Both the position numbers and the translations under genes were made by a program. From Spirometra erinaceieuropaei (lineage: Eukaryota > Platyhelminthes > Cestoda > Diphyllobothriidea > Diphyllobothriidae), in the NCBI GenBank assembly GCA_902702965.1, contig CACRXP010000300.1, forward strand, positions 634,279-698,278: DNA of 64,000 bases. Reading direction: 5' to 3'. Below, one piece after another: positions 3,985-59,199 of the stretch (position 1 is its first letter; the number at the start of each line of letters is the position of its first letter). Below the pieces are notes generated by a model, which was given only the letters and a program-made list of their open reading frames with translations, was not told the origin of the DNA and made no database searches.

Positions 3985-4015
3985 TTCATATTGACCCAAC
4001 TACGTGAAACTCTGT

Positions 4016-4558: not shown

Positions 4559-4606
4559 GCCGTGTTTTTCACAGTTGGGTCAATATGAATTATTCAAAAT
4601 CTGCCA

Positions 4607-11346: not shown

Positions 11347-11847
<501 letters not shown>

Positions 11848-26402: not shown

Positions 26403-26406
26403 CTTT
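26383..26406 (+). repeat. (TATC)n microsatellite tail
   Basis: About six TATC/TATT units form the 3' end of the composite element at 25781-26402. Another copy of the same tail, ending at about 28268, finishes in an ATT repeat instead. Confidence 0.8.
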
Positions 26407-37118: not shown

Positions 37119-37274
37119 TTAAAAATATTCAATGTTGATAGCAAAAGTGTCCTCAATCTTCTCGTTTTCATCAGTTAGGAAGACAAAGCAATTAGTGGTC
37201 GTTGGCGATGGAAGCACGTTGAATTTTAGACAGATCTGGGCTGTCTCACCGGCGCCGACATCGAGCTGACTGTC
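37119..37274 (-). CDS. NPHP4: NPHP4 terminal exon
   Basis: Encodes the last 51 residues, from DSQLDVGAGETAQICLKF to FAINIEYF and TAA. This matches the family's C-terminal end, where GGGET is followed by a beta-rich stretch and a short aromatic tail. The acceptor is GTTTCAG; joining is phase 0 after PDLVQIK. Confidence 0.9.
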   Translation of the reverse strand, partial: DSQLDVGAGETAQICLKFNVLPSPTTTNCFVFLTDENEKIEDTFAINIEYF

Positions 37275-40200
37275 CTGAAACGGGAAGCCAGACAACCAAT
37301 GAAATCATTAGCAACACTAAGGAGTTAGATGCCGCCATTATAAGTAACGATGTCGGCTTCCATACCGAGGTGAGGACGGAATTGGGCGTAGTGCCTGACG
37401 CAGCGTGAAAACCTGCGTCTAGGCACACCATTACTCCCTACCATATTACGCCAGTAGTTGTGGGCTTGCGCAGACTCAGCACGGCCCGGTAAACGCGTTA
37501 CGTGAGCCAGTCGGGCCCCCGTTATGGTCCAGCGCAGTTCGTTGCCAGGACAATTGGGTGGCCCATAGTTGATAGAGTCGTGTTTATTTTCCGGAAATGT
37601 TACAGAACAGCAATAAGGACATGTAACCGCTTATAGAAGCTGCAAGAGAGACGCGCATACCTTTATCTGAACCAGATCCGGTCTGCTGCTTTCTAACTGA
37701 AGTGTTTTGGCCTGGGGATAGGGGTTGGTGTAAGAAAGTCGCTTATTCAGGGTGCCGGTACTGTCATCTCGAGCGTAGACAGGTATTCGGACGTCATACG
37801 TACGCGAAACCTCGGGCGCTTTGGTTTCGACGCAGAGAATCCATGAGTGAAACACGGCGCGGCTTGTCTGATCGACTACATTTATTTGGTATTTTCGTTT
37901 CCCTATAGCCTTGGGCTTGACTCTCACCTAAAACGCAAGAAAGGGAGGATAATTCTGAGTTAGGAATTTAGTTTATGTATGAAAAAGACGGCGTGGAAAT
38001 TGCATGTGTTAACTGCAAGTCTAAGTAATACCGTTAGCTGTTAAGAGTTAGGTTTGGCTCCAGAGTAGTTAATTGCTCTGTAGGCGATCGAGAAAAACTG
38101 ACAAGTAAGCTTCACTTCCATGAAACCTCAATCTCCTTGTTATAGCTTCTGAACAAGCTGCTAATGGTAGTTTTAAAATGATCGCTGGCACAATAGACAC
38201 GTCTTCCATTTAATTTCCCCGTGGATTAGCCCTCAGCCGCTGGCAAAGCCCGCATCCTAGTTACGGGAGTTTCAGAGTGTTTGTTTTGTTCTATTACAGA
38301 GCGCGCTAGACCGTCCGCCACACTTTAGGCCATTTAGTCTCTGGAGGTACATTGACGCGATTTTAGTACCACACTGAGTTTGGTGCGCCGTTGAAACTGC
38401 CTATTCCAGAGTATCCTAGTAAATTTTCACATGTTGCCGAAGAGCGTCTTCCCTAATATGCAATTCACGAGAAGGGAAGGGGGAAGAGTTACCAGTCTTC
38501 CTTGAATTTTTACTCATGAGAACACTCAATGACTGACTTGAGGCTAAGTTACATTGGAATGCAACCAAACCAACAAGCAGCCTCAGCTAATACAACAGTT
38601 GTCCACCTACATACGGGTGTAGTTGTGTTAAAAGTCGGAGCAAAGATGTGAAAATGCAGTCTAGTGTACAATGCGTGACCTATTTCATGAAATGTTGGCT
38701 GAAATTCTGAAATGTGTTTTCGATTCGGAAGGATTACTTGGTCGCGGTTGTGATACTGATTATCTTAAGGCATACTCTTATAACATTTCGGACTCGGCAG
38801 GATGTCGGCTTTAAAATGCACTTCTTTTCAATCTCCTGTAGAAAGCGTACTCGGCAAAAATGACTACTTAAGTAGCATGCATTTTTCCCATTTATTTTCG
38901 ATGGTCTTTAAAATTCAAATATATTTTATAGAAACCACAAACAAAAATATGCTTTCTTTTAGTCAATCAATAGAGAATCACGTCTTTTTTTAAAACCTTA
39001 TTATAAGTCTTCTTTAAGTATAAAATATAAAGAAGACGTGATTCTCTATTGATTGACTAAAAGAAAGCATATTTTTGTTTGTGGTTTCTATAAAATATAT
39101 TTGAATTTTAAAGACCATCGAAAATAAATGGGGAAAATGCATGCTACTTAAGTAGTCATTTTTGCCGAGTACGCTTTCTACAGGAGATTGAAAAGAAGTG
39201 CATTTAAAAGCCGACATCATGCCGAGTCCAAAATGTTATAAGAGTATGCCTTAAGATAATCAGTATCACAACCGCGACCAAGTAATCCTTTCTAATCGAA
39301 AACGCATTTCAGAATTTCAGCCAACATTTCATGAGATAGGTCACGCACTGTACCTGAGGAATGATCATAAAAAATCCGGCAAGCCCCAGGGGCCGGCCAC
39401 CGTCGGACCTCCCTGCTCGTCTTACAGACTACTGGAAGTAGGTCACCACAACTACGACGGTCCCCGCCATTTGCCCAAGAGGTTTCTGAAACGACGAGAC
39501 ACATTACCAGGGAGTTATGTACCGTTATCGCCCTTCGACCGGGAGCAGCCTCTCTGAAGACAGCCAATTAAGGGTAGATGAGCAAGGTGGCACTGCTTGT
39601 CACGGTGTCGGCAGCAGGGTGACTGGACTGACAGCTACGCGAGCACCGATTGGTCGTGAAAAGTTGCTGTCCTCACCCTGGAGCCATGCTACGAGGCTGA
39701 CTTTGGAGGAAGATTACGGCGTAGACTACAACAATGTTGGGTGAGAGCTGCTCCGCACCCGGGTCTCGAAGTACCATTTAATAAACCGACTGACTCTGCT
39801 GCTGTTCCCATTCTGCCGTGGTTTGCTATCAAAGTGCCAGGTAGTGCGGCTGCTGAGCCCCGAAAACTTCTCGTTTATTTGCTACAACTCTTTTCGGCGT
39901 CACTGAGTATGGACTCCTACATGGGTCTGCAAGATCGGAGTGGTCTGGACCACTTTCCGGCGATTGGTCCGTCTATCCCCGTTTTTCACGCCTACTTATC
40001 AGTATGCAAGTAGCTCCAGTGAAAAGCTCCAGGTTTGTCGATGAAAAGCAGTTAGAGACTAATACGAGCGTCCGTTATTTGTTTGGGACTGCCTTTCCGT
40101 GTAGAACGGCTGCTGTGAACGCGCTTCACAACTAGCGAACGCTACGCTGACCGGCGATTGGTCCGTATCTCCCTGTTTTTTGCACCTACTTATTAATGTG

Positions 40201-43200
40201 TAAGTAGGCATATTTAAAAGCTCTAGGTTTGTCGATGAAGAGCACCGGTCCGTTGTGTGGATAGCTAGAATCAAGTACGTACCTTTAGTTCGTAAACCGA
40301 TGTACTGTTGAGCAGGAAGGAAAGTGTCCGAGACTCGCCGACTCCGGCCATAGTACCAAGTTCTGTGCCGAGGGAGACCTCCAGAGGATGGCTGGAGAAG
40401 ACGCCAACACGACGAGAGGTTAGTAGACGACCCCCGTCCGCGCTCGTAGATCCTCCGTCTCCCCGGATCAACAGTCCTGCGTAGGCCGACTGACCCAGGA
40501 CCGTCACTAGGTCCACACGTCGCAGACTCTGGATTGACCAATACCAAATGTAAGCCGGCTTGATTTGACTCGGATCCAGGTAGACTGCCACCAAAAACCG
40601 TCGAATCTTGCGAAAGTAGAGTAGAAAAATAATTAGAAATGGAGTGTCATACGAGCAAGCACTAAAAGGTAGTTGGAGTTGAGGCAAGAGAGAGGATCAA
40701 CGGATTTCATTAGACAGTGCTATAAAGTGTAGAACGAGTTGTTTATTTGTTTTCGACCTTCCCATGGCAACAATGGGCGTACGGGTCATACTTGTCGAAC
40801 GCGGGTAACATTCAGCTTGATTCCGAGAAGACATTCCTCGGCATCTGGCAGCAGATACGCCTCTTATTGGCTCACCTAGACGGTTAGCTGCTGACTTTGG
40901 CTGACTTCTTCCCCGTGCACATTTTGGTAGCTTGTCACTAGTCTAGTCTGGGATTCAATTTAAAGTGACGGCGTCCGGATTGCTGTTCAACCGCAGTGGT
41001 GCCCTCCGAACCAGCTGCGTCGATGTTGCGCTAGATCCAGGTGTTAGGACTGCGTGAGGCGCACACCACACCGGCCACTGCGTCCAATCTTATCCAAGGT
41101 CGACCTGACTCGGACAGGCCAGCCGTGACTCGGACGGTTGCCACACCTGACAGGGTAATTCGATCCTGCTCAAAACTGAGGATCAGGCTGCAGTGACTCC
41201 TTAATGTGGCCTTTATGGCATTTCCGCTACTTTAAGATCAAAACACCTTTGACGAGAATTGAGTATCCGACCGTCAAAAGCGACGACGTTCACCGCGTGC
41301 TCCACAGAGTTGACTCAGCACCGGCGACTTGCGAAGCTTCTACCGCACCCGCACCTCCCAATATATTTTTCGCCGATGGCAAGAAAATGTCATAACGACC
41401 GGAATTTGGCTCAGGCCCAATAAGCTGACAAAGATAAATGCCCCCCCTCCCCCCTAGACGTGCCACACAGGACCTGATCCGTACTACAGTTTCCGGACTA
41501 CAGTGGCGACAACTCAGATTTAAAGCGGATGAGAGTGCCGCAAAGACTACTGTTAGGAATGAGCCATTCCAGCCTGACTCTCAGTCTTCTAGTAACTCCA
41601 AAGTACTCACCACGAGGACCGAGCTATTCAGTCAACTGGCAACCTTTTAGGCCACGACTTTTAGCGTGTAACGATAAACTCGGGAGCGTCAGATTTATTG
41701 TAGGGAGGACTGTGCACTGACATGCCGTGAGGGTATGGATTTCCCAGGGTCGGCCCCACTTAACGAGACCCAGATGCGTGTCGTACACCGACGGGCTGTG
41801 TAGCTTTGTCAGCCACTGCGAACAAGACCATCTATAATCGTCTTGTCATCAAAACGCGATAGATGCGGTAGGTAGGGGCAAGTTGAATGCAACCAAAATC
41901 TGTCCCACTGTAAAGCAAAGCATGCGCAATTCACTGCTCTAAGCCCACCTTATGAGGGCAGTTGCAAAGGTCGTTACTTGCTACGGTCGAACTCTCGTTC
42001 AGTCACTATTTCTCATGGTACATCCTTCGGCTGATGAACAAGCATATAGTTCTGCAAAAGACATTCCGCACTCATCGCGGTCTGTAACGGGCCAGTTCTC
42101 TCAAGATGATAAGTACGTCGAATGCTTAGCCGAAAATGGCCTTGGGGTCTGAGAAAGTGGAGCTGACGTCTAGTAAGACCATTATATTAAGTAGAGGCGC
42201 CCTGATAAGAACCTATTTCTGAATGTACTTTTGTGCGAATTCCCTTTGCCGAAATCTCTGGCCACCAACTGCAGTAATCTACCATCTCTGTACGCCAGTG
42301 TTCTCAACTGCTGGTTGTTAGTTTTGGTCAGCTTCCCTATCGTTTGCACCATCCTGTTGCGTTTGATATAGTCCTATATATGTGGGCTAAGGCGACGAGT
42401 TACCACTCAACCACACTTGTTTGAGATCCATAGTTCTCCTTGTGACATAAGTGGGAACCTTTCTAAACGAAGCAGTCCAAACACACTGTCGTAACAGGGC
42501 GACAGTTGGATTCGCGTTCAATTAAGAAAATGTACGCAGGCAATAATTTGTCTTAGTGCTCACCAATCGGCAAAACCTCATCAGTGGAAGAATGTATATC
42601 CGGCCGAGTATATCTCAAATAAACAAGCAAGCATCGATCCGTGTACAAAGTCGCAAATAACAAGTTGAGAATTGATGCAAATGATCAAAGCACGCTACAC
42701 TCGAGGCTACGGTCTTCCAGCAGTTTCTGGAAGGTAGTTAGAGTCACAGTGAGCCTCATAGACGAAGGCAGCGTTTTTCTTGTGGGGCAGAGAGGTTTGG
42801 GCTTGCATTACATATCGTGCGGTTTGTGGCCTGTGAGCTATCCCCCCCCCATCCCAAGGAGTTTAGTCAGTCGAGAGAACTTCACTCGTAGGAATGCTTC
42901 AGCATTTCTGCCTTCGGGACTGAACGGCAGACCAGACTGTCCTTGACGCTAGACTAATAAATTTTCATCTTGATACAGTCCGTGACACATAAGTGGCATT
43001 TCTTTTTGACTGCAAGACTACGAGCCTCATTCACCCTGCAAGATAACGCCCTGGGAGAGAATCCAGTCGCCAACCTCTGATTTTTGTCGTCTTCTCTCAA
43101 CTCCTGAGCTTCTGGGGACTGTCTGGTCTGTACGAGTTTCGTGTTCTAAGACTGAACGCCAAATATAATTGCTCATGGTGATGCTGTCAAACTATGCTAA

Positions 43201-46200
43201 TTCGCCTGTTTCAATTTTAATCTTCTGCGTTTATCAGGTCTACTTTGCAAGCGCATCAGAAAAGTAGTTCAGACTGAAATGTGTTCTCAGTGCAAGTCGG
43301 AGATAAGGGTATACTCAATATTCGTACAACCGACAGACAGGCCACTAGTAGCTCAGGCGATGAGAGCACCCGTATCGAATTCGAGAGGTCAGGCGGCTCT
43401 CGTTCGTCCTAGTCCGCATGTTTTCCGGCTGTGTGATTTTGATATTCTGCATGAAATACCAACAGACTGTCTCCTTAACACACATGAACTTCAGTCTCCC
43501 AAATTGATACGAATTTTTAGAATAAATTTAACTTTGTATTTTAATGTTGTCGTAGTCAACAACAAAAGATAACGGTTAGTGAGGAAAGTGTCGCACCATG
43601 TCAAACTACTTGTCTGTGTTTATGAAGTTTGCTTTGCATTCCCATCTGAAAAGGTAGGTCAAACCGAAATGTGCATGCATTGCGAGAAATTTGGGTTGGA
43701 CAGGGGATCCTCTTTGTGTTTCCCACTACAAACTCCAATAACTCTAACATTCATAACTCAAGCTCTAATTCTAGCCCTTTCAACCTTCACCCTAACACAA
43801 ATTCTGACCATAGCCATAACCCCCTCTAAAAATTAGCGCAAAACCACCTGTAATACGATGGTCACATTTTTTCCGAGTTCTACTGAGGGTGTTCGGGTTT
43901 TGTGTCTTTATAGTCAATACCGGTTATTTAGAAGATGTCACATTATGTCAAATTACCCATGTTTCCATCTACTGCGAACTTCCTTCCGGCTGCATACAAA
44001 AACCATACTCTGTAAAAAATGACCACTTAAGCAGCACACATTTTTCTCTTTGATTTTCGATGCCCATAAAAGTCCAATTATATTTCCCGGAAAAAATGCA
44101 CAAAAATAATTATTCCTTTGCTTATTCGGTAGATAATTACGTCTTCTTCTAATTTTATACTCGAAGGAAGGACATAATTCGGTTTTAAAAAAGTTTCTAA
44201 TTGTGGGACTTTTAAATACCGTGAAACGGCCGTCTCTGCATTTACCAATGTGGCCTGCAAAGTTAACAATATGGATCAAATCCACTGCTAAATTTTATGA
44301 ACCCTATATGGTCCCCCTTTATTGCCGTAGAGAAAGGTGTGGTTTTCCGTACGCGGAAAATATACGGCTTGTAGTTTGGAAACCCTGAATCCAAGTGTAA
44401 CGGTTGGGCGGGTTTAAAATTATTCGAGAATTGGAAAAGTTTTTGAAAACCTAGTTATACCCTTCCTTCACGTATAAGATTGGAAGAAGACGTAATTGAC
44501 CCAAATGTGATTAAACTCGCGTCATCCGGTGAGGTCTCGTAGCTCAGATGGAAACACATTTACCAAAATAAGTGATCACCACTTACATCCGGTGAGCTTC
44601 CAGCGCTCACTTTCACCAGTAAGTCAATTGGTCTTCCAAAGGTAACAACCGAGGACTCTGTGATGACACCAGGATCGGAGACTCGAGTCCAGACTTTCTG
44701 CAAAGCCCGACCTTCCGCGTCAAGGCCCGCCGAAGGCAGATCGCCTGCATTTCGTGTGAATGGTGGGATTCGCACAACACGTTTGAGGTAGCTGAGTTCT
44801 GGTTGGAAGAAGTGGAAGGTCTGATCAATGATTGGTGGGTAGGTGTAGATTTGCAACTGCAACTGTCCCAGGATTTTACCAGTCCGCATTGATTTAAAGG
44901 TTACCTGCAAGAGGGTGTGGAGTTGTCCACAGAAGGATGTCAAAAAGGCCAGGGGTAGAAATACTGATTGGTCGTCAGTCAGGAAAATGTTTCATGCGCT
45001 TGAAGGACAACAGGGGGACAAGGGTAACAAAAGTTTGCCCAGATGTGCTTAAGTACTTCGATGGTTCTAATCACTCACCAAGTAGTCTAAATTCCCGGCG
45101 ATTTGCAAAGCTGCGAAATATTCTGTGGAGTACTGGACGAACAGTTTAATTCCATAATTTTCCGGCGTAATAATTAGCATAGGAGTCAAAACGACCAATG
45201 ATACCGGATATGAGGGCTCAACGTTGGACTGAACTGACGGAAACCGACAAAGACCGACAACGAGTAGAGCATGTTCCAAAATTGCGATCCAGAAGGGCCT
45301 TCGGTTTTGTTTTTATGTCAAATCGGAAAGAATGTTCAGGCGCATATGACAAAGTTATGATCTCGTCTACGTCGAACGAGTCGATTTCCTTAAATGCCTG
45401 CTAATGACATGATGGGCGTTCTCATCATCCCCGGAACAATTTTTTTCATAGGTGTGTTATGACAGATTTCAAATAATTCGCTCAGGTGGCCAGTGCGTTG
45501 GCTGTACCAAAGCCTCCCCTTGCCGTTGTGGGTTCGAATCCCACCGAGGCACCGAGTTTTTCACAGTTGGATCAAAGTGAATTTGTTTTTTTTTCCTGAG
45601 CTTTCGAATTCTTCCTGGAGTTCATCCCGAGAGATAATAAAGCATCCCAGTGCTCATTCAGTCTCCCTCCCTACCAGTATATACACCTGGAATTCGAACA
45701 TTCGTCTCCACTCATCAAAATCACTGTCTGTCTGAGAAACGCGCAGCTGCATACCTTTTCACTGCGTTGGGCAACAACTCACTGAAGGCTGATAGATCTC
45801 AGCTCAGGTTATGCGGAGTTTTATCAGCCACCGCGGTCTCAACTCGGGGGATAACCAAACCCATCCGCTGGCGGGTGTGGTCGGGCTCCGGGGAAAAAAG
45901 TGGTCTCCTCTTGACGAGGCGTGTTGAATTCCTCTTGACTATCGAGGCAGTCGTGATGCGTGCAAGCATCACTTGTACATGACCTTCACGGCGGCCGGGC
46001 AGAGTCGTGTCATTGGCTGAGCTCAGGAGGCTTGACGTCCAATCAGGAGAATGTAACATCTAACAAGCTCGGATACGGGAAATTAACGTCATTTCTATGT
46101 ATCCAGGCGTGAGTAACCGCTACAAACGCAGTGATAACCACAGATCACGCGAAGTCTTCGAACCTGTCTCCTTTTATTTTTAGGCTCAACAATTTGTGTT

Positions 46201-49200
46201 GTGGGATCATTGCGACCAATTGTCGTAACCTTTTTTTTCAAAGTTATGGCCCGTTGCTATGACTGACAAGAATATCATTTTGGACAAAATTACTTCGTAC
46301 TTTTAAAAAAACAATCCTGGCGCCCAAGCCCCTATTAATCATGATGGAGTCGGCAAGCTCTTCGATGTCAGCAATATTGGCGTGACTAAACTATCAAACT
46401 ACGCAAATGACTGCACTTTATGCTAATTGTATATAACTTCACTTAAAATTTCATATGTACATTGAAAAGACCGCCTGCCGCACCCTTCACAGTCCGCACT
46501 GTAAGAACGTTTTCCGTAAACAAATATGTTACTGGCAACATTTTAGTGAGGTGTGCGTTTAACATGTATATTGTATGTACCGTTTTCAATAGGGTCATCA
46601 AGGGCGTTGCCTAGTAACCTAAAATACACACACTACTAGGTTTTGCTGATGTGCGAGTCCAAGGACTCGAGACTCCCAGTATGCCATCTGGTGCAATGCC
46701 GGGTAGACGTTTGTTTCAAATAGCGTCCTTCAGGCAGCATGCTCTGTCAATGCTTAAAGTCAGTCAGTAGGGAGACCTATTTTAATCAAGGTTTTAACCG
46801 CCTTAAACCCCGAGTTTAGAGGGCCAGCTTACAATAGTATTACTTATGAGAAAGGTTGCAGTCATAAAAATGTGTAGAGAACAACAAAAACACTTACCAT
46901 GGCTGTGCGTTCACACCTATCCTTGGCGGCGACGCGGTCATCAATCGGTTCCTGAAAGAAAGCGCAAAGAGGTGTAATTTCTCTGTCGTAATAAGTTCCA
47001 GAAGCCCTTCGCTTACAATCGCAGCTCTTAGCATGTGGCTCCAGTTTGTCAGTAGACGAAAATAGAATGCAAAAATGTCATTAACTTGGCGAGTGGAAAA
47101 TAGTGGCCACACTTTTGAGCTTTGTGCAGGTCTGCGACCGCTCGTCTGCTGAACAGCAGATTACTTTCAGTCACAGTAACAAGTGCACCTAATCACACTT
47201 CTCTCTTCACGCAGACGGGGTCTTACCATGCACTTGGCTGAAACAATGTTAAATTCTGAACGGCTCCCTTTGTTCGTATACTCAGCCAAATGGTGGATGA
47301 GTCCCGCCTTAAGAAAGTGGTTTGATGGAGGTTTCGGACGAGTTACATTTTCTGGATTAAAAATATGTTTATGGGTTCTTTCCCAAGAGAGTTCTGGTTG
47401 TTAAGGTCCCGTTCTCAAAAAGGGAGATTTCTGCCCCAGGCACTGACAGGTGCCGGTTGTAATGGTTTTAGGTACACGGTAAAATATTCAAAGCAGTATC
47501 GTTCTTGTGTATCCGTGATCTCAAATGTCTGAGTTTGATACTGCTTTCTGGATTCGGTCCGATGTGGTTATGTAGCCCCACCTGAAGTAAACAAACCCTA
47601 GCCACCTGTAATACGGGACCAGTGGTAATAGGGTTTCTTACAGGTGGGGCCAGGGAACGCACAGACGACGAGATCAAGTAGTTGGATGCAAAAGAAAGGC
47701 TATTTGGAATGTGCCTTTGTACTTTGAGTGATTAGGAAATAGTTTCCCTGACTCCCAACCCTTAACTCTAACCCCTAACCTTAATCCCTGACCTTGATCC
47801 CTAATCTTAGCCCCTAAACCCATAATCCCAATCCCTAAATATAGTCCCTAATCCTAACCCTAACCCCTAGTACCAACTCCAGCAGTATTGTGTCCATCAG
47901 GAGGGGCTACATAACCACATCTTACTCTGAATTTCAAAGTTTTCCTAGTACCTGCCATAGTCTAAACGACTACTTTTGTACACTTTTTCTAATAAGATTT
48001 AATTCTGCTCTCAGTGGACACCAACCCAACTGCAAAGGTACTTCTCGGAAAGCTTATATGACCCCATATTTATGCCTGTATGGAAATACCTTTGGCTTTA
48101 CGGTGAGGAACTCATCGACGGTGGAGGCAGAACACTCCATGTACTTGAAGGGCACCAAAACCTTCTCATTGGGACGAAGACAGATGGCGATGTCAGCCTG
48201 ATTTCTTCGGGGACTGACGTCTGTGTCGGTCGCGTTGCCTTGGAGCGGCACATTATAAGCGAAGATACTGTCGTCTGTGGGGGTCGTAATGTTCTGACAA
48301 GCCTTAAAAGCTCGAATCTCCGGTGCATTGGTTATCAGCTGCAAACTTCCACTTAAGGGAGTGGTTGAGAAGGAAGATTAGACTGGCGTTTGTGCATAGT
48401 GTGAATTTACAAAGAGGAAATAATTTGAACGGAAGGCATCTGTACTCTGAATTTCGATAGTTCGATGAAGATGTCCAGAAGAGGATTGCTCGGCAAGTAT
48501 AGGTTATATGACCGGGTCGGGAAAGATAACCGGTGGAGCCGTTGAAGTGTGGGACTGGTTTCCGACAAAAAGCGTGCCCAATAACGCCTACTTATATAAA
48601 TATAGTAGGCGGCCCTGGATAGTAAACCTGCCTGGTCATATACACTATCCTTGCAGACTGTTCGCTCAACTGATATTTTTTTAGTTCAGTGTCCTCAGGC
48701 TTGCACAGATGTATGAGAAGTTGTCATTTTGGGTGGAAATTTCAAAGAGCGAGACGAGTAATTCCTTTCATTATGTTCACTTAAGAATGTTTCGGAGCGA
48801 GGAAGTGGTACCCCAATGGGGTGTATAAGTTCATTCGGTGAACGGCCGAGCGAGCTGTATAGACGGATTGTCGTCGTCTTCTTCGTAGCCATAAGGCGCT
48901 TCCGTATTGACTCCTGATGATTCGGTTGCCCTCTATAGACTATCTGGAAGGCTTAGTGCGCGTCAAATTGGTGGTCGGTGTCAATGAGGTGGACAAGGGT
49001 ATGTCGGACACGCTCTTTGTCTCTCATACCAAATGTGCCAACTCATCGGCACATAGTAAAAAGCCTACGCCAGCAGACCCTCTGCACATATCGCAGCATC
49101 AGCCCCTCACGCGGTTCGAGCAACTCCTGTCATTATCAACACGCGCTCTCAAAACCGCATGTGCACTGGATTCGGACATTCATTTGGTCGTTTACTGCAC

Positions 49201-52200
49201 TGTCGACCCCTCACTCTGTTTGGTGTGTGGCGGGGAGTTGTAGCCCCTAAAAGGGGATTAAACATTCTGCCTCTGGCACCCACACCGCGCTAAGCGTCAT
49301 GTGATCACTACATCCGAGCGCCAAAACGTGAGCACATTCAGCCACGAGGATAGCCAATCACGGGCGCCCACAAACTCTACTATCACCCAATCAACTAATC
49401 AGGCTTACACTGACTGACTCCCAAGTGACGCTTATTCACTCATGCCCGCGTCGCTCTAGCACACGAACGTGACTTTCCCCTTCTCTGAAGCGGGACTGTG
49501 CCGTGATTATTGTGGCGCTCTGAGTACACTCCCACAGCTTAGGTGCCACAGGTGCAGTCAACGGCCGTCTTTGATTCACCCCTTCGGAATCAGGTTGACA
49601 TTTGTTCTCGCATCTTTTTGAACAAGCTCAGGATCGCTCAAATAAGGTAGCCTGCCATGCAGGGAAGTAAATACATCCTGAGGTCATCTGAACTGGGAGC
49701 ATATCAGTCTCTACATTCGTAGGACTGAGTATGAAGGCGGACTTTCGAAGCGAGAAAAGCGCGAGCTAGCCGTATGTTTACTTTTTCGCCCTGTGCATTG
49801 CCTTGGAAAAAGAGTTTGTTAGAAGTCCCCACCTTTTATGGCAGTGACCCCTCTAACTTTAGCTTTTCGTTCCTTAATACTGTTGGTCATGAATCGTTCT
49901 GGGCATATGTTTTCCGTCGATATGCGCGGAATCTTTTCTTACTATTCCTTAGTATCATCTGGTGCACAAATTGTTCTGTTTCTGGTGTTTAAAGTTTGCT
50001 TCGACGAGGAAGGGGGAGCGCAGCACAAACCGACCGAAACTTAAATGTCGCTCTGATCATTCTTTCTTCCAATGAGCGGTTCTGCCTGACCTGTCGAGCT
50101 GTCTACTACCCAGTCTTGCGTCCACAGAGGGATCGACTTTTAGTGCAATGCTTCTGGCGTGAGCTTGACCGATGGGTGTATAATGGCCCTACCACACTCC
50201 CCGGGAGCTCTGGTCGACCTCAGTAATTAAAAAGCCGTTTTTGCCAATAATGCCTGAGACTCACTTCCGTCGATAAAGCATTTTAAGAATGCACAGGTGG
50301 AGTTTTAAGTTAATTGAATAGTGAAAAAGGTAGGCCGCGGGAATGAAAACCATCCACGCTACAGATGGTCTTGCGCTAAGTTTCAGAGAGATTAGGGTGA
50401 GGATTAAGGTTAGGTTTAGGGTTGAGGTTTGGATTAATGTTAGTGTCGGAGATGGGAGGAGACAGGAACAAGTGCCCTTCCTCGAGGTTAGCGTAAAGCT
50501 ACGTATGGGTTTCCTGTCTCCGTGTCTATCTGAAAACGTTATATTTCCAGGTGACTGCTATTGACTAGACTTATCCTTCCAAGCTACTAAATATGACATA
50601 CCCATGACCGTCAAAAGTCTGCTTAAGTATTGCAAATACTTCCATTGGTCTTCATTGTTTATGGACGGGTCATTGCGCCATGCAATCCGTCTACTCGAGT
50701 ACAAACTTTGAAGAAGACGTGATTTGCTACCAGGTGATTATAAGAATGCATATTTTACGCATGATTTTTCATAAAACACCTTTTAATTTATGAGGGCATC
50801 GCAAGTCCACAAAAAATGCAAACCAGTTAAATAGTCACTTTCGCCGATTACGGTTTTTACGGACGGCCGAAAAGAAGCGCACCCCAAAGTCGGTATCCTG
50901 GCGTGACTGAAATATTTTGGGACTATGCCGCACGATAAGCAGTATCGCAAGGGCACCTACAGTAGGTGGGCTAAGTCATGAAATCTCAACAGAAATTTCG
51001 AAATGCGTTTTCGTTTTGAAAAGATTAATTAAGTAGGGTTGTAAAACTAATCATCGTGCAGCATAATTCTATAATAATTCAGTTACCCCAGGACGCCGGT
51101 TTTCGAACAAACGCCTTTCCGGCTGCATCCACAAACCATACTCCGTACTAAAATGACTGCTTATGTAGCATTCATTTTTTCAATGATTTTCAATGCCCTT
51201 AAACATTCAATTATATTTCATGGAAAACATGCACAAAAATATTCATTCTTTTACTCATTTGATATAAAATTATGTCTTCTTTCAATTTTTCGCTCAAAGG
51301 AAGGGTATAATTCGGTTTTAAAAAGTTTCTAATTGTGAGATTTTTTATACCGTGAAATGGCCGTTCGCAAAACGCCATGTCTTTGCATTTACTAGTGTGG
51401 CTTGTAAAGTTAACAATATAGATCCAATCCAATGTTAAATTTTTTGAACCCAATATGGTCTCCTCTTAATACGGTATAGAAGTGTATGGTTTTCCATACG
51501 CGGAAATTATACGACTTGTAGTTTGGGAGCCCTGAATGCAAGTGTGACGGCCGGTCGGGTTCAAAATTATTCAGTAATCGGAAGAGTTTTACAAAACCAC
51601 ATTATACCCTTCCTTAGAGTGTAAAATTGAAGGAAGACGTAATTTTATATCAAATGAGTAAAGGAATGAATATTTTATGCATGTTTTCCATGAAATATAA
51701 TCGAATTTTTAAGGGCGTCAAAAATCAATGAAAAAATTGCGGGCTACATAAGCAGTCATTTTAGTACGGAGTATGGTTTGTGGATGCAGCCGGAAAGGCG
51801 TTTGTTCGAAAACCGGCGTCCTGGGGTAACTGAATTATTATAGAATTATGCTGCGCGATGATTAGTTTTACAACCCTACTTAATTAATCTTTTCGAAACG
51901 GAAACGCATTTCGAAATTTCCGTTGAGATTTTATGAGTTAGCCCACTTACTGTAGGTAACCCCTCTAATCGAAAATGGATCTCAGAATTTCCAATTAACA
52001 TTTCATGAAATCGGTCACTGGCCGTACGGTCACACTTAACAAAGAGCCCCCGAGTTAATTATATGGGTTCCAATGGTACTGGAGCAACGTGACATAGAGT
52101 ACTGCTTTGGGCGTTGTTCTTACTTTGAATCATCGATGAGAACCTGAGCATGGTCCTCCTGGTTCTCGGGGTTATGCAGTTCGAACTCGAAGAACTCCGT

Positions 52201-55200
52201 GCTGCCGAAGGATGTGTGCAGAGCATACTTCAGAGTGGCTGCCCCAGTCAGCATCGAAAGGATGTTCTCACGTTTCACACTCGTACGGAAGGTGTCGATG
52301 ATGTCCAGCTCGGTGGCCCTATCAAATGGCACCTGCGCAAAAAGCAAACAAACGAAAATCAACCAGCTAAGCGTAGACGGGTCATGGATATTGAAAGTAT
52401 GCTCCCCCCCCTTCACTGAAGTAAGGGGATTTTGGGATTGTAGTAGAAGTGTCGACGACAAACCTCACGAGTGTTCTCCCTATCTCCCATCACAGCCAGC
52501 GCAGCCTGTTTGGCCATCCTGAATTTGGCCAGCATACGCTCTCTCTCCGCGCCATCGGGCCCCACCGACGACTCGGCTGGACTGCGAAGCACGCCCCTCT
52601 GGATTTTCAACTGTTCATCCAGCTGCGAATAGGTGTCCACCATTTTTCGTGCTCGGACAACGATTGTCTTGGTTGGTTGTGAGGCCACAGGAGCAGCCTG
52701 GAGCACAGTTGACAATGAACCGCCGTAGAACCTGTGGAGCAGGAGTGCATTTTATGACGGTGGGGACCGTTAGGAATTGTGGATTTCCCCTACCCGTTTT
52801 TTAGCTGTGCAGTCATTAGGAGGCAAGCCTAGTCCATCCAAATAATGATTCATTCTGAGAAAACTGCTTGTGGCAAGTAGAATGTCAGTTTAGCAGTTGA
52901 ACTTTTAATTATGTGACGTAGCTCGTGAAATATTCACTGGAATTCTGAAATGCGATTTCGGCTGGACCAATCTACGTAGGTGCGTGCAGCGTATCCTGTC
53001 CGGGCCGCCAGGGCATCAGTACTCAGGGCATCGTACTCAGTACACGTCCTATTTCCAATTACCCTTCTGTTTTGCATACATAACAGTGCGGTTGTATGAC
53101 TACTTATCACACAGCACGATCAGATGATATTTTAGACATGTCACCATGCGGGCTATTGAATGCACCCACTCTTGCTCGCCTGCATGAATGCCAAGTAGCA
53201 GGAATCTTTTTCCCCGACCTATTCTTTCACTTATCTAAAAATATTTAAACAAAACATGAACACAATTATATTTTCCCACGTTTGTTAGCAAATTACGTAT
53301 TATTGAAAGTTTTAACTCGAAGAAACAGAATCTCCCGGTCTTAAGACAGTTTTGCAATTCCCGGTTACTTTTAAACCCGACTTGCCGATGCACTTGTGGC
53401 AATTTTGTATTTAAAAAAATTATACGTTGCTGTATGCTGTTGCGAAGATATCATATGGGACGCATAAGACGTTGCACTGGATATGGACTAAAATTGACAA
53501 ACATTACTAACCTTAACAATGGGACGGATGTGAATAGACCTTTTGCAGTCTTGAAAATGTGATAACTACTTACAATTTTTTTAAAACAAATGCAAACCCT
53601 TCTTCAAGTGGAAAATTCGAACATTTAGTTTACGCATATTGAGTGTAAGAATGAATGTCCTAATGGGTGTGCCCTCTAGGAAATTTGTTTAAAATTATAC
53701 GGACATTGAAACTAAACGGAAGCAAGAATTTTTAGTGAGTGCAATGTTTGCAAGATGCCAGAAAGACTCACTCGAAAGCCAGCATCCTTGCATGACCGAA
53801 ACATTTTGGGATTATGTTGCATGCTGCTCAACATTACAATCCTACCTCAGTAAATCCTTCTAACCGAAATCATATTTCGTAATTTCGGCTAGTGTTTCAT
53901 GAGGTTCATCACTTACCGCAGGCATTTGCCACAATAAAGTGCTTAACTCTTCTCTCAGATCAGAGAGGAAACCGCTCAGGACATACCCCGGAGTTGTGCC
54001 CGGTTGCCCCATCGCGATTACATGCGATCGCTTCTGTCGTCCGCGCATGGTTCGTCGTGAGGCAGCGATGCTTGCCTCTCGGTAGCCAACATTGGCCAGA
54101 CGGATGTGCAGCTGTCCGAGCACGCGATTGGTCGCCTGCGGCACCTCGTCGGTTGAGGCACCGTCCCCGACCCAGTCCCAGTCTGGTGGTTCGGTCACAT
54201 CGGCAGCGTAGATCACCTGAACAGCCTCGCGACCTTGCCTGCATAGGTGCTTAAATAAAGTACACTTTGTCAGATTACAGTTTTAACCACTCTCTTTAAC
54301 ATCTGGCTGGCTGGACAGTTTTATACATAAAACTAATTTAAACAGGTGTAAAAATGGCGCTGCAACGATCACAATCATAACCCCAACGCAAACAACCAGC
54401 GATAGCCCGAGACCGTCCTCCAGAGCTTTTACGGCAGATATCTGATGCGATTACAAACAGTTTTACTAGTCAGCCGTTGAACGGAAGATATCAACGCAGA
54501 TTTCACGTGTACTACGCTTATCCAAAGCGTTCCATTTATAGGTATTTTAATTGGCAGGTTAGGCCACGTCTAAAGCATTTAAGTGAATGCGTAGACTAAG
54601 GCATAGTGTTAACCTGATTGGAGACTTATTATTTTGGGTTTTTAATGTGAGGCGACCGTTTTTGTCTCAGAGTCTAATTACTTACCGTTAAAGTGATGCT
54701 ACATGTCCTTTTTAGCAGGGGAAATGGCCTTACGCCAAGTCCTACACGGTAGATTATTGGCTTGGAGTTAAATAAATTTCCGTTCTCCTGCGTGAATCAT
54801 ACTTCTCGTGAAAAACGCACAGCCAATGTAGTTTGCATTCCTTCACTGACTGTTGACGCCTCCATTCTTTTACTAATAGTATTTATGAGGAGCAAGAAAA
54901 AAATGCGTGTACTGTTTGTGGAAGACTGCGCTTTCGGTTTTTACTTTAAGAAGGGCGAAAGTGTGTTTTTTAAAAGGGTTTACTGATCCTTATAAACTTT
55001 TAAAGAAGCCGCCGTATTTACCTCTTCTGTGGGTTTTCATACTACTCTCCGCGTCCTTTTTTCGAATCACACACATCACCAATATTGGGCTAGATATTAC
55101 CCACAGTGAGCTGGTGAACTTGTGGGTAGTGGGCTGATTAATATTCAGGCGAACTTTTCAGAAATAACCAAAATCACGAACTCTTTGCAGGTGAAAATAA

Positions 55201-58200
55201 TCCATTCTGAAACGTCCTAACTTCGAAGGAAAAGCGGCGTCCTGCTAAGTAAGTGCAAAAATAAGCTTTTCGTCCATTCTATCAGCAAAATATAAGTAAA
55301 TTTATGTAAAAAATCAAAAACCAATATGATAATTTTCCTTGCTAATTTGGTCGAAAGGCAGCATGCTAGGAAGGAAGCTTTCTGTTAACCGGCTTTTACA
55401 ACATCACCTCCAGGCTACTTTAAGTGAAAGGCCGAAACAAAATTGGCAATTTAATGCAAAAATTCCAATTTACACGATATCCGGGAAGTTTTACCGAAAA
55501 GGCAACAGTAGGTTGTGTAACCCCAAGGTTCGTGTAATACGGAAATAGTGATATGGGGTTTAGGGGCGGGACATCACCGCGGAGGGGAGACGAAATGCAT
55601 GCAACAGAACCTAAAGATTAGGGGGATTTCCGCTGAAGATCTTCTTCTACGCCTATATATAGCAACGAAAGTGATCGCGTCAATTGAAAATAAACAAAAA
55701 GCTACTCTCAATAAATGAAAAGCAACTGCGGAATCCGCCACTAGCAAATTTGCGACAGTTCAGGAACCAATTGAACTTACAATTAATGGGAAAGGAGAAC
55801 GTTAAGGGGCAAATATTGCAATTGAAAATTTACTCCGATTTGGCGGGATGACATGTGTTATTAGAGAAGCCATATAAATACGCCCTAATGAATCAGGTGT
55901 AAGTAAAACAACGTGCGTACATTTCCGTTATGAGTCAACTGACTACTGCAGAATAAAAATTTAAGGAAAATAAATATTAATATGCAAAGGTTATGCGCAA
56001 TTATGAAATGCATTTACGAACAGAGTAGGTAATAATGGTTGTTTTTACTTCCAAAATACAGACAGCCGACTCTAGGTCGCAGCGGAGTCAGACAACCATA
56101 GTTGGATTTTCTGACAAAAGCAGAGGAAATAACCGAAGTCATAAACTCGGAGAAGGTGGTAAAATACTGCCAAGCAAGGGGATTGCTATCTAGTTTGGCT
56201 AACTGTCAATGTGGACGAGCAATTTATCACTAAAAAGACCATACTGAAACAACTCGTTGCAGGTGGTTATATCAGTGTGTTAGGTAAAACTCCCAGGGTG
56301 ACCTCCTGTAGCTGTGAACTGGTAAACTAAGTAAAACTTACTAAAACTAATTCAGTAGTTGATTATGCATAATGAACCTAATGGGTTACACAACCTATCC
56401 TTATCAAAAAAAAAATTAGAAACACAGTAATGGATATTTCAGGCAATAGTCTCCTCGTGTGTTCCAACATCTGAAGGTCGAAGTATCACGAGTTGATGGC
56501 GGCCAATAAACTAGGGATGGCTGTAATAGCCCTTCTCCGGGCACCAGTTGTAACGCTACACTGCTCGCGAGTATTTGCAAGTGCGCGTCACTGGCGGTCC
56601 TGTTTTCGACCAATCACAGCTGCCCAAACGGGCCAATCGTCTCCAAAGTCAACTCAAGCCGCTGTGACGCATTCTTCACTCGGGACGCCGCTCTAAAGGC
56701 ACAAGACGTGTTCTCTCGTCCGACCGCCAACTTGTTTCATCCGGTTCTCTAATTTTTCTGTTCAAATACAGCATCCTCTCGACTAGTGTTCAACGTCTCT
56801 TTCTGTTCGAGACCGGACCTGAAGGTCGTAGTGGATACGGTCTGCTTATGGCTTAAGTCGCCGCGACACGATCATTAAACATTGTTAAGACCAGCCGACG
56901 GAAGGCAAGCTCGATGACTTAGGTAGATAGGGCAGTTGATTGCCAGTACGCAGGGTTGGTCTGTCGGTTAACAGGCGACAAACGGTCATCCCAAAGTGTG
57001 TGATTTGGGTCGCCTACCAGGTTGTTTTTCCGCAGGCAGGTTTCACGACTTCAAAAATGATGCTAAAGTTAAGCTTCTGTGTAAGTGAAATGCCTCTGGG
57101 CATATTCGAGTGGAGGGATTTAATTGAGAAATAGGCAAGACACAACTTTTGAGAATGCAGTGAGAGAGTGACGTCGTGATGACATTCGGCCACAACACAT
57201 ACTTTAAGTTCCACAGACGCCGTTCCTATTAGCATCATCGATTCTGCGCTCCAAACCTCGAGGTGAACAGAACTCGTGAGGAGAAACTGCAGGAATCTCT
57301 CATCTTCTCCCAGTCGAAGAAACAGTGGATCCACATTGAAGGAGACCTAGAAGTAGACAGAGGTTATGCTGCAGAAATGTGCTGAAATTATGTGGAGAAA
57401 AAATACTTTGGTTGCATAAAAGTTAATGAATCCCATAGTTGCGACTGTCTCTGACGATGGGTTCAAGTGAGGATCTTAGGCGTCAGGTTAATAAACTCTC
57501 TGTTCCAGCGATCACATTCTCTTCTTCTCTCGCGTCTTACGCAAAACCTTTGTGCCAGCCTCACTCTTGTCTTAATATCATTTCCGAGGATTTTCCATTT
57601 ATTTTTTTCCTTATTTTTGTTTCTTCGGCTTCTTTCTCCTGCCCCTTTTCTGTTCCTTTTTTCCTATATGGCGCTCTTCTGTACCTCCTTAACCCTTTCA
57701 ATGTTTTATTTCCGATATTATTTTTATTTTGTCACAAACCGCACTCTTGTCGTTTTATTGGACAGACTCTCCTGCTCTCACTATGAATACTCGGAAGGGA
57801 TCGATGGTTCGCATGCACCACCGGTTAATGTCCGTCGTCCTTCGCTGGCCAATCAGCTAATGCCATTCGCGTCCTGAAAATTAGCGTTGCTTGTAAGCGG
57901 GGGTCGGGGGCGACAAAGACCCAATTTACTCCTATAAAAGGACAGAAAGCTGGCATGCTTTGACTATCAACTGTGAAAAAAACCATCTCTTACACAATAT
58001 CCGGGTGGATTTTCGATGCTGGGCTTAGTTTGGGCATCCACTCTATTTCGAATCAGAAAGGCTTTCCCACCGACGAGCTGCGAAAATTCGTTCTGGGCTT
58101 CAGACAAGCAGAGGCTGAAAGAACATCCGAGATAAAAAGAATAAAGTGTCCATTTTAAACAAGTAACATGGTAAATATTAAATTGCGAAGCAGGAAAGTG

Positions 58201-59199
58201 GCGCAAACATGTGTAGACCGAAGGTGATGAAAACTAAACGCGAATTTGTAGACCGCTGTGGGGCATGGCAACCACAAAACAGTTGGATCAATTACTTGAC
58301 CTGGAGTCTATTCATTGCCGTTTTTTCATTTTTTCAGAAATTAACTGCGAACTTGGAGTAGATCGGTATATTCTAAATTGCATTATCTACCAGAAAACAG
58401 ACGGGGAATGCTGGGTGACCCACTGATGAGTCGAACCCCTTGCAGCTGTGCCATGCGGCAGCGGAATATCGTTGAAATACGCGTGTATGGATCTTTAGCT
58501 AGTACCTGTGCTACTAGTATGCTATCCTCTTACCCTAAAGTCTATTCATTTTTTATGTCCACGACGTCAGACGACTCTGCCTTTAATTAGATCATAGACA
58601 CTCTTGAAGGAAAATTTAAGGACGGCACATTTACATTTCACATCAGCAGTTTGGGATCAACTGGGGAAACCGGTGGAAGGACCCCTGGAAGTTTTTCTCT
58701 TATCGGAACTCCCTCCCCCGACGAGGGCATAGGCAATCAGAAGCAGCAGCAGTCTGGAAGTACAACTTACAATGGCGTGGTTGTTTTGGGGAATCGATAG
58801 AAACGAAAGGCAATGAGGATCTCCGACGACGCATTCAGAGGCGACGCGAGACTCAGCGAATTTCTAAAAAAAGATAGCAGTTCAGTGTCAAGTTCATCCT
58901 GCGTATTTTGAACGTCACAAAACATCCCCAAAAATGAGGCGGATGTTAGATGCTTCTTCGTGTATCAGCGTTGTGTCAACAGAAACGAAAGTGATAATTG
59001 CAAAAAGTAAGGAAACAAATAGCCGCTTCAGGGCAATTTTCGAGACTTTCCTTTCCATCAAGGGATTCTTACTTGTCCCTCTTCGTAATCAGGACAGTCG
59101 TGATTAAAGCGTAAATGCATGCGCCAGATAACTCTATCAATAGAAACTAATCCTGCAACACGGGCAATACTGGGTAAGTCGGAGTCAGAGTAATCGAGT
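37119..59199 (-). CDS. NPHP4: Nephrocystin-4 (NPHP4), 3' part of the gene, multi-exon
   Basis: Nephrocystin-4 works at the ciliary transition zone with NPHP1 and RPGRIP1L. Exons from 3' to 5': 37119-37274, 37661-37927, 40283-40606, 44587-44904, 48090-48351, 52124-52332, 52464-52731, 53987-54249, 57203-57346, 57994-58114, 58771-58898, and tentatively 59073-59199. The first eleven join in a single frame to 2460 nt (819 residues plus TAA) with all splice phases agreeing, and follow the order of the C-terminal ~800 residues of the ~1,430-residue vertebrate protein. Diagnostic pieces are FRFYRFPKTTTP, MMLIGTASVEL, HIRLANVGYR, STEFFEFELHNPEN, QPELSYLKRVVRIPP, FSSHPLEV and RLSYTNPYPQAK. No stop or frameshift breaks it. 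Introns reach ~4 kb and hold MITEs and telomere-like tracts. The N-terminal exons were not found and probably lie beyond the window. Confidence 0.92.
37661..37927 (-). CDS. NPHP4: NPHP4 exon (second from 3' end)
   Basis: 89 codons. Contains INVVDQTSRAVFHSWILC and NKRLSYTNPYPQAKTLQL; the latter matches the conserved KRITYTNPYP segment of nephrocystin-4. Acceptor GTTTTAG and donor AAAG-GTATGC, both phase 0. A GTG opens the exon but is an internal Val codon, not a start. Confidence 0.93.
38669..39350. mobile_element. Hairpin MITE in an NPHP4 intron
   Basis: A ~680 bp near-perfect palindrome. The left arm (38669 to about 38990) and right arm (about 39028 to 39350) are reverse complements over ~320 bp, with a ~35 bp AT-rich centre. 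Outer ends are CAATGCGTGACC and GGTCACGCACTG, with TA immediately outside each end, consistent with a TA target site as in Tc1/mariner-type elements. There is no internal transposase; the open frames mirrored on both arms (38802-38993 and 39014-39220) are artefacts of the palindrome. It lies in the intron 37928-40282. Confidence 0.85.
40283..40606 (-). CDS. NPHP4: NPHP4 exon (third from 3' end)
   Basis: 108 codons, phase 0 at both ends. Contains FLVAVYLDPSQ, WSIQSLRRVDLVTVLGQS, VGVFSSHPLEV and SVYELK; vertebrate equivalents are a YSDRW stretch, LHSLQRVDVSCVAGQL and RAFTSHPQEL. The acceptor is the unusual TTCGCAAG; the donor is AAAG-GTACGT. Confidence 0.9.
43738..43828 (+). repeat. Degenerate telomere-like tract (C-rich strand)
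   Basis: Irregular units resembling CCCTAA or CYCTAA: 'ctctaacattc', 'ctctaattctagcc', 'caccctaacac', 'catagccataaccc'. It lies in an NPHP4 intron and is followed by 'ccacctgtaatacg'. It is too degenerate to be an active telomere. Confidence 0.55.
43925..44490 (+). mobile_element. Truncated hairpin MITE, left arm and centre
   Basis: Similar to 51110-51620: 'ccggctgcat', 'aaccatactc', 'aaaatgacc.ctta', 'gtataattcggttttaaaa', 'accgtgaaa.ggccg', and 'tatacccttcctt'. The right arm is missing: after 'gaagacgtaatt' the sequence switches to the tRNA-derived element at 44491. It lies in the intron 40607-44586. Confidence 0.7.
44491..44551 (+). repeat. tRNA-derived element, 5' fragment
   Basis: Matches 4440-4497: 'ttgacccaaatgtgattaa', 'actcgcgtc', 'atccgg', 'ctcgtagctcag'. 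It stops at GCTCAGATGG in the A box. The continuation (GCTCAGGTGG onwards) appears at 45480, 928 bp away, on the same strand. Confidence 0.75.
44587..44904 (-). CDS. NPHP4: NPHP4 exon (fourth from 3' end)
   Basis: 106 codons, phase 0 at both ends. Contains PPIIDQTFHFF, QPELSYLKRVVRIPP, VSDPGVITES and LLVKVSAGSSPD, all recognisable in vertebrate nephrocystin-4 (HPELSFLKKAIRLPP; CSDPNVICET; LKVASGPSPE). Acceptor CTTGCAG, donor GAT-GTAAGT. The exon sits between two pieces of a tRNA-derived element (44491-44551 and 45480-45575). Confidence 0.94.
45480..45575 (+). repeat. tRNA-derived element, 3' fragment
   Basis: Matches 4488-4585: 'agtgcgttggctgtac', 'gtgggttcgaatcc', 'caccgaggc', then 'tttttcacagttgg.tca'. 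It begins at GCTCAGGTGG, which repeats the end of the 5' fragment at 44542-44551 with one mismatch. Confidence 0.75.
45576..47745. other. NPHP4 intron sequence, no other gene recognised
   Basis: Sequence within the 44905-48089 intron. A segment at 46590-46625 ('gggtcatcaagg.cgttgcct') recurs at 30104-30125, so part of it is repetitive. No exon or RNA gene was recognised. Confidence 0.4.
47746..47875 (+). repeat. Degenerate telomere-like tract (C-rich strand)
   Basis: About 130 bp of varied CCCTAA-like units: 'cccttaactctaacccctaa', 'ccttgatccctaatctta', 'gcccctaaacccataatccc', 'ctaatcctaaccctaacccc'. Just before it at about 47600-47645 lies 'cacctgtaatacgggacca', a motif shared with 43845-43865 and, in reverse complement, 805-830. 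It lies in an NPHP4 intron. Confidence 0.7.
48090..48351 (-). CDS. NPHP4: NPHP4 exon (fifth from 3' end)
   Basis: 262 nt. Contains ITNAPEIRAFKAC, ICLRPNEKVLVPFKYMECSA (vertebrate YLRPHETAHVPFKFQSFSA) and ends FLTVKPK before GTATTT. The 5' boundary at 48351 uses a CTTAAG acceptor, the only nearby AG that keeps the reading frame with the previous exon. That boundary is less certain. Confidence 0.85.
48352..50387. other. NPHP4 intron sequence, no other gene recognised
   Basis: The first half of the 48352-52123 intron. The frame at 48917-49243 is long but has overlapping alternatives and no motif known to me. I cannot assign a gene here. Confidence 0.4.
50388..50440 (+). repeat. Degenerate telomere-like tract (G-rich strand)
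   Basis: Units resembling TTAGGG/TTAGG: 'gattagggtgaggattaagg', 'ttaggtttagggttgagg', 'ttggattaatgttag'. It is in the opposite orientation to the tract at 47746-47875 and lies inside an NPHP4 intron. Confidence 0.6.
50960..51952. mobile_element. Hairpin MITE in an NPHP4 intron, larger form
   Basis: A ~990 bp palindromic element. Its left end reads CAGTAGGTGGGCTAAGTCAT and its right end reads ATGAGTTAGCCCACTTACTG, flanked by TA on both sides. Arms of ~300-350 bp are reverse complements; a central ~250 bp (about 51330-51580) is not palindromic and contains 'accgtgaaatggccg'. No transposase. It is the same family as 38669-39350, with a longer centre shared with 43925-44490. Confidence 0.85.
51960..52030. 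mobile_element. MITE terminal fragment
   Basis: 'cgaaaatggatctcagaatt' and 'aacatttcatgaaatcggtc' followed by 'actggccgtacgg' resemble the right end of the hairpin MITE family. It is a short relic adjoining the larger copy. Confidence 0.5.
52124..52332 (-). CDS. NPHP4: NPHP4 exon (sixth from 3' end)
   Basis: 209 nt. Contains ENILSMLTGA, LKYALHTSFGSTEFFEFELH and NPENQEDHAQVLID, matching the vertebrate TLGVAEFFEFVLKNPHN region, which is a start of the Ig/MSP-like domains. Acceptor TGCGCAG, donor CAAA-GTAAGA (phase 2). Confidence 0.94.
52464..52731 (-). CDS. NPHP4: NPHP4 exon (seventh from 3' end)
   Basis: 268 nt. Begins FYGGSLSTVL (vertebrate RFSGGSLLTT) and continues with a charged helical stretch: YSQLDEQLKIQRGVL, ERERMLAKFRMAKQAAL. 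Acceptor CTCCACAG; donor GAG-GTTTGT. The intron to the next exon is only 131 nt. Confidence 0.9.
52900..53932. mobile_element. Decayed MITE filling an NPHP4 intron
   Basis: The left part ('gtgacgtagctcgtgaaata', 'ctggaattctgaaatgcg') and right part ('taaccgaaatcatatttcg', 'gtgtttcatgaggttcatca', 'cttaccgcagg') resemble the two ends of the hairpin family. The element takes up most of the 1255 nt intron 52732-53986, so that intron's length is largely explained by one insertion. Confidence 0.6.
53987..54249 (-). CDS. NPHP4: NPHP4 exon (eighth from 3' end)
   Basis: 263 nt. Starts HLCRQGREAVQ (vertebrate HLLRQGRPAVQ), then VIYAADVTEP, RVLGQLHIRLANVGYREA (vertebrate GRLHLTLANVGHP) and KRSHVIAMGQPGTTPG. 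The acceptor is TATTTAAG, again AAG type; a later CAG would drop HLCR and break the frame. Donor GG-GTATGT, phase 2. Confidence 0.92.
54250..57202. other. NPHP4 intron sequence, no other gene recognised
   Basis: AT-rich intron of ~2.95 kb. Only unsupported small frames were seen (for example 54762-55137 and 56416-56696). A segment at 55525-55570 ('gtgtaatacggaaatag' then 'ggggtttagggg') resembles the telomere-linked motif noted at 47600. Confidence 0.45.
57203..57346 (-). CDS. NPHP4: NPHP4 exon (ninth from 3' end)
   Basis: 48 codons, phase 0. Contains VSFNVDPLFLRLGEDERFL and VHLEVWSAESMMLIGTASVE (vertebrate [20 protein letters not shown]), a C2-like beta-strand region. Acceptor CTTCTAG, donor AAA-GTATGT. 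Confidence 0.92.
57994..58114 (-). CDS. NPHP4: NPHP4 exon (tenth from 3' end)
   Basis: 121 nt. Encodes LCLSEAQNEFSQLVGGKAFL, then IENPPGYC (vertebrate LQLVQLDEAG; AGSPGF). Acceptor TTCTTTCAG, donor TGT-GTAAGA; the phases agree with both neighbours. Confidence 0.82.
58771..58898 (-). CDS. NPHP4: NPHP4 exon (eleventh from 3' end)
   Basis: 128 nt. Encodes DELDTELLSFFRNSL and ILIAFRFYRFPKTTTP; the latter is a clear match to the FTFQFYRFPPATTP signature of nephrocystin-4. Acceptor TACGCAG, donor CCATT-GTAAGT. An open frame on the opposite strand across this exon is a shadow. Confidence 0.88.
59073..59199 (-). CDS. Tentative NPHP4 exon (twelfth from 3' end)
   Basis: 127 nt with acceptor GTCTGCAG and a strong donor CAA-GTAAGA, phase 0 into the next exon. 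The frame reads LDYSDSDLPSIARVAGLV and then FNHDCPDYEEGQ. The acidic end fits the region before DELDTELL, but similarity to vertebrate nephrocystin-4 is weak here. The frame also stays open upstream of the proposed acceptor, so the 5' boundary may be wrong, or the whole segment may be non-coding. Confidence 0.45.

What the first reader, a model, noticed from the sequence alone, without database searches (positions are those of the whole stretch)
37119..59199. NPHP4 (nephrocystin-4) scattered over 22 kb in one repeat-rich locus
Eleven exons assemble in one open frame with matching phases and follow the order of the vertebrate protein. A complete-looking C-terminal two thirds of a ciliary transition-zone protein is therefore retained in what appears to be a parasitic flatworm, whose cilia are restricted to a few cell types such as larval surface and flame cells. 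No single frame exceeds ~130 codons, so ORF-based annotation would miss it.
Basis: partly seen in the sequence, partly recalled or inferred. Interest (0 to 1): 0.75.

Follow-up and report, generated by a model that had tools for sequence, protein, structure and literature searches.

The report
Ordinary, complete NPHP4 gene in tapeworm
The stretch holds the second half of an intact tapeworm gene for nephrocystin-4, a protein of the gate at the base of cilia; the gene is already in public databases, so the find is real but ordinary.

Summary
Twelve minus-strand exons (58863..37119) join, all at GT-AG, into an 825-residue frame ending at a stop. It is letter for letter residues 690-1514 of a public 1514-residue Spirometra erinaceieuropaei protein (P0028), found only after the model was built. 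Relatives: Sparganum proliferum 'Nephrocystin-4' 93%, four flukes 34-39%, a bird 30%. Corrections: twelve exons, not eleven; 54% of the protein, not two thirds; the piece at 59199 is not an exon. 'C-terminal two thirds retained' is a window-edge effect. The window's own genome carries the rest of P0028 in nine more exons on the same contig, the nearest ending 227 bases beyond the window. The gene has 21 exons over 52.5 kb, 19 GT-AG introns and one GC-AG; all 18 matches of P0028 in the genome lie at this locus. A published Spirometra assembly is 53.2% repeats with long genes (PMC12249497), and the planarian genome was reported to hold NPHP1-9 except 2 and 3 (PMC4500094). Likely function, by homology: gating of cilia. 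One weak lead: no named cyclophyllidean tapeworm among 32 homologues in three non-exhaustive searches.

The parts
58771..58863 (-). NPHP4 exon 10 of 21 (P0028 residues 689-720)
57994..58114 (-). exon 11 (720-760)
57203..57346 (-). exon 12 (761-808)
53987..54249 (-). exon 13 (809-896)
52464..52731 (-). exon 14 (896-985)
52124..52332 (-). exon 15 (986-1055)
48090..48351 (-). exon 16 (1055-1142)
46898..46951 (-). exon 17 (1143-1160)
44587..44904 (-). exon 18 (1161-1266)
40283..40606 (-). exon 19 (1267-1374)
37661..37927 (-). exon 20 (1375-1463)
37119..37274 (-). exon 21 (1464-1514) and stop codon
58864..64000 (-). part of intron 9 (5363 bases in all); exon 9 ends 227 bases beyond the window

Best explanation
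This is the 3' part (exons 10-21 of 21) of an intact NPHP4 (nephrocystin-4) gene, with no second copy seen, of Spirometra erinaceieuropaei or a near-identical Spirometra. Shown: the full public protein of 1514 residues is encoded in order on one contig with normal splice sites. Inferred from homology: the protein is part of the NPHP module of the ciliary transition zone, sits there with RPGRIP1L-type proteins, and helps control which proteins enter cilia, here in flame cells of the protonephridia and in the ciliated coracidium larva.
For: Exact identity of the model to P0028 690-1514, with P0028 found after the model was built. Residues 1-689 of P0028 are all covered by exact matches on the adjoining contig sequence, with one GT/GC-AG solution at each of the nine upstream junctions. 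All 18 matches of P0028 in the genome are on contig 300. Of the 27 homologues, 21 carry a source name Nephrocystin-4 or NPHP4. The tree follows cestodes, flukes and other animals. The last domain of a modelled fluke relative matches domains of Ig-like fold (the fold label is recalled). The same genome has one RPGRIP1-type C2 match and nine B9-domain matches. In Chlamydomonas NPHP4 is at the transition zone and nphp4 cilia hold 13-fold more CCT1 (PMC6215392 passages).
Against: No expression or localisation data were seen. The Chlamydomonas nphp4 mutant still assembles cilia (PMC6215392 passage), so the role may be mild. A search for the CC2D2AN-C2 family found nothing in this genome, but no control genome rang either, so it says nothing. 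The local Pfam copy gives no NPHP4 family even for a bird NPHP4, so the family scan is uninformative. In planarians the strong RNAi phenotypes reported were of NPHP5, 6 and 8; no NPHP4 phenotype was named in the passages I saw.
Confidence: 0.98

Rival explanations
1. A 5'-truncated relic or pseudogene of NPHP4, of which only the C-terminal part survives.
For: No N-terminal NPHP4 exon lies inside the window: tblastn of P0028 1-689 gives nothing better than E 0.11.
Against: The missing exons lie on the same contig from 64227 to 89596 in extended window coordinates, in order and with full identity to P0028. No stop breaks the joined frame in the window.
Confidence: 0.01
2. The gene is intact but serves mainly something other than ciliary gating in this worm, for example a centriolar or signalling role.
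For: Flatworm NPHP4 is divergent: long branches lead to the flatworms and to the cestodes, with 30% identity to a bird sequence.
Against: Similarity to other animals runs over nearly the whole model, and domains of transition-zone partners occur in the genome.
Confidence: 0.08
3. Extra or alternative exons belong to the gene: the reader's piece at 59199-59073, and an open piece at 45216-45079 that I considered.
For: Both are open between an AG and a GT; 45216-45079 has a good donor (GTGAGT) in a fitting phase.
Against: Neither is in P0028, which runs without a gap across both places. Against the 27 homologues held the second matches nothing at E<=10 and the first only at E 5.0 and 5.2. The first has no donor of fitting phase in its long frame.
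Confidence: 0.02

Closest known systems
P0028, nr 'unnamed protein product [Spirometra erinaceieuropaei]', 1514 aa
   Same: 825 of 825 residues identical; residues 1-689 also encoded exactly upstream
   Different: no difference seen; it is deposited without a name
P0001, Nephrocystin-4 [Sparganum proliferum], 1308 aa
   Same: 93% identity over model residues 108-825
   Different: its gene model lacks the residues of exons 10-12 and has an extra piece matching intronic sequence at 49129-49046; it begins at what is residue 153 of P0028
Fluke NPHP4 (P0003 Paragonimus westermani, P0005 Heterobilharzia americana, P0029 Fasciola gigantica, P0031 Schistosoma japonicum)
   Same: 34-39% identity over nearly the whole model
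   Different: ordinary divergence between classes
Vertebrate NPHP4 (bird P0008)
   Same: 30% identity over model residues 15-824, same order
   Different: fast flatworm and cestode branches

Membership tests
NPHP4 (nephrocystin-4) | Collinear similarity over nearly the whole length to named NPHP4 proteins, and a place among them in a tree | tested here: met
   27 homologues at E<=1e-3, 21 of them named Nephrocystin-4 or NPHP4; pairwise coverage; tree of the model with 16 of the 32 homologues
NPHP4 (nephrocystin-4) | NPHP4 Pfam domains (PF26189, PF26190, PF26015, PF28126, PF26187, PF26186 as precomputed for P0028) | tested here: inconclusive
   Direct hmmscan of the model finds none, but a bird NPHP4 and P0001 find none either. 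P0028, of which the model is residues 690-1514, carries them precomputed; which residues they cover was not shown
NPHP4 (nephrocystin-4) | C2-like part followed by Ig-like (MSP/ASH-type) domains towards the C-terminus (architecture recalled) | tested here: inconclusive
NPHP4 (nephrocystin-4) | Intact full-length reading frame | tested here: met
   P0028 1-1514 mapped exactly
NPHP4 (nephrocystin-4) | Localisation at the ciliary transition zone and binding to NPHP1/RPGRIP1L | not testable with these tools
   needs imaging and pull-down

The most novel reading that the evidence does not exclude
NPHP4 is kept in tapeworms with a ciliated coracidium (Diphyllobothriidea) but lost or unrecognisable in Cyclophyllidea, whose larvae are not ciliated (larval biology recalled). 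The three named cestodes among the 32 homologues of three searches are all Diphyllobothriidea.
Probability: 0.2. Interest if true: 0.4.

Novelty: already known. Interest (0 to 1): 0.12.

Why it matters
It gives a checked 21-exon model of a ciliary gate gene in a tapeworm, shows that the deposited model of a close relative misses three exons, and shows how a window edge can make a whole gene look truncated. The biology is expected.

Tried and rejected
Rejected as exons: 59199-59073 and 45216-45079. Pfam scan of the model: one sub-threshold C2 match; the controls P0001 and P0008 showed that the scan is uninformative. PDB by sequence: nothing for the model but two E 0.78 chance matches, nothing for the bird NPHP4 at E<=0.01. 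Structure of a fluke relative: tandem beta domains; the best whole-chain Foldseek matches are ciliary central-apparatus chains, with TM normalised by the query at most 0.23 among the 50 rows shown of 1984, so only the single-domain match is used; many of those rows are bacterial pilus chaperones, which shows a shared fold only. Module partners in the genome: RPGRIP1-type C2, 1 match; B9-C2, 9 matches on 4 contigs, several with stops inside the matched stretch; CC2D2AN-C2, none but uninformative. PF09773, PF07773 and PF16574 (meckelin, tectonic and CEP290 by recall) were asked and never answered. Literature searches: nephrocystin-4 with flatworm, 2 papers, passages read; tapeworm with cilia and transition zone, 7, none opened; NPHP4 with Platyhelminthes, 1, not opened; Sparganum proliferum with genome and cilia, 1, not opened; nephrocystin with Echinococcus, 0; NPHP4 with Schistosoma, 0; NPHP4 with transition zone and evolution, 137, of which two were opened for passages; Spirometra genome and coracidium, 6, one opened for passages; Hymenolepis with flame cells, cilia and gene loss, 0. 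One search gave no full-length solution because it allowed GT donors only; one search timed out; one search solved each upstream junction, one of them GC-AG. Searches are not used.

Full report
What is there. On the minus strand of the window twelve exons, from 58863 down to the stop codon at 37121-37119, join into one open frame of 825 residues. Each of the eleven internal introns is GT-AG and every phase fits. The model was made before any flatworm homologue had been seen. A search of about 5.8 billion proteins then gave 27 homologues at E<=1e-3, led by Nephrocystin-4 of Sparganum proliferum, with another tapeworm, flukes, a bryozoan, vertebrates and a tunicate behind it; 21 of the 27 carry the name Nephrocystin-4 or NPHP4. 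A second search added P0028, an unnamed 1514-residue product of Spirometra erinaceieuropaei. The model is an exact substring of it, residues 690-1514. Reversed sequences of the 32 homologues of all three searches match nothing in the window at E<=1e-2.

There are twelve coding exons, not eleven. The limit 59199 fits the acceptor of an open piece (59199-59073). None of the 7 GT sites in its long frame fits the phase of the next exon, though one weak site in a short frame does. Against the 27 homologues held then it matches only at E 5.0 and 5.2, and the real upstream exon joins straight to 58863. The window holds 54% of the protein, not two thirds.

The rest of the gene. The window lies at 634279-698278 of contig 300 in a 758.7-Mb, 1932-contig genome. 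In 30 kb of adjoining sequence residues 1-689 of P0028 are covered by exact matches in order, in nine exons with one GT/GC-AG solution at each junction. In extended window coordinates these are 89596-89489, 89452-89312, 87296-87071, 87030-86708, 86563-86291, 80111-79734, 78009-77960, 72476-72064 and 64380-64227. So the gene has 21 exons over 52.5 kb; 19 introns are GT-AG and one (the second) is GC-AG. A whole-genome search with P0028 gives 18 matches, all on contig 300, so no second copy was seen. The apparent truncation is only the edge of the window.

Context. In a chromosome-level Spirometra assembly 53.2% of the sequence was repetitive and mean gene length was about 14-16 kb across the assemblies compared (PMC12249497, passages). 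A long, repeat-filled gene is therefore ordinary. Introns here carry a family of foldback repeats. Exons are 53% G+C against 45% for the span.

Relatives. Identity to the model is 100% with P0028, 93% with Sparganum, 78% with Schistocephalus, 34-39% with four flukes, 30% with a bird and 28% with Ciona (local alignments, not all over the full length). A tree of the model and 16 of the 32 homologues, each cut to its last 900 residues, gives a cestode group (100/100) beside a fluke group (93/97) on long branches; the program warns that long branches may be misplaced. The pairing of Sparganum with Schistocephalus there may come from faulty gene models. The Sparganum model lacks exons 10-12 and contains a piece that matches intronic sequence.

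How it probably works. By homology NPHP4 belongs to the NPHP module of the transition zone. Published work says that NPHP4 is the most prevalent protein of the NPHP complex, though missing from the Excavata, and that RPGRIP1L generally occurs with at least one NPHP component, usually NPHP4 (PMC4092220, passages). In Chlamydomonas NPHP4 needs RPGRIP1L for its place and nphp4 cilia hold 13-fold more CCT1, but the nphp4 mutant still assembles cilia (PMC6215392, passages). The tapeworm genome has one RPGRIP1-type C2 match and nine B9-domain matches on four contigs, in line with a kept module; a search for CC2D2AN-C2 was empty but uninformative. The likely sites, flame cells and coracidium, are inferred and were not tested.

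Known or new. The planarian genome was reported to hold homologues of NPHP1-9 except NPHP2 and NPHP3 (PMC4500094, passage), and the very protein of this window is in nr. The finding is correct in kind and already known. The only open lead is the lack of named cyclophyllidean tapeworms among the 32 homologues; since the searches also missed a known fluke (P0003), I give it 0.2.

Noticed in passing
38666-39353; 50955-51957; 44100-44500: Three related foldback (palindromic) repeats in NPHP4 introns, arms up to 325 nt and 97% complementary; 68-78% alike between places.
   Followed up: partly
11347-11847, minus: Frame with ubiquitin fused to ribosomal protein L40, both domains matched over their full length.
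   Followed up: no
15258-17082 minus; 22258-24023 plus; 26375-26815 plus: Pieces with endonuclease and reverse-transcriptase matches (the one at 23631-24023 is below its cut-off), split over several frames; LINE-like.
   Followed up: no
4013-4096 minus; 4479-4561 plus: Two tRNA-Ser (anticodon act as printed) in opposite orientation; both pass Rfam's tRNA threshold.
   Followed up: no
P0001 (Sparganum proliferum) against window 58863-57203 and 49129-49046: The annotated Nephrocystin-4 of S. proliferum omits the residues of three exons and includes an intron-like piece.
   Followed up: yes
extended coordinates 89488-89453 and 87070-87031, beyond the window: Very short introns of 36 and 40 bases near the 5' end, and a GC-AG intron between exons 2 and 3.
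   Followed up: partly
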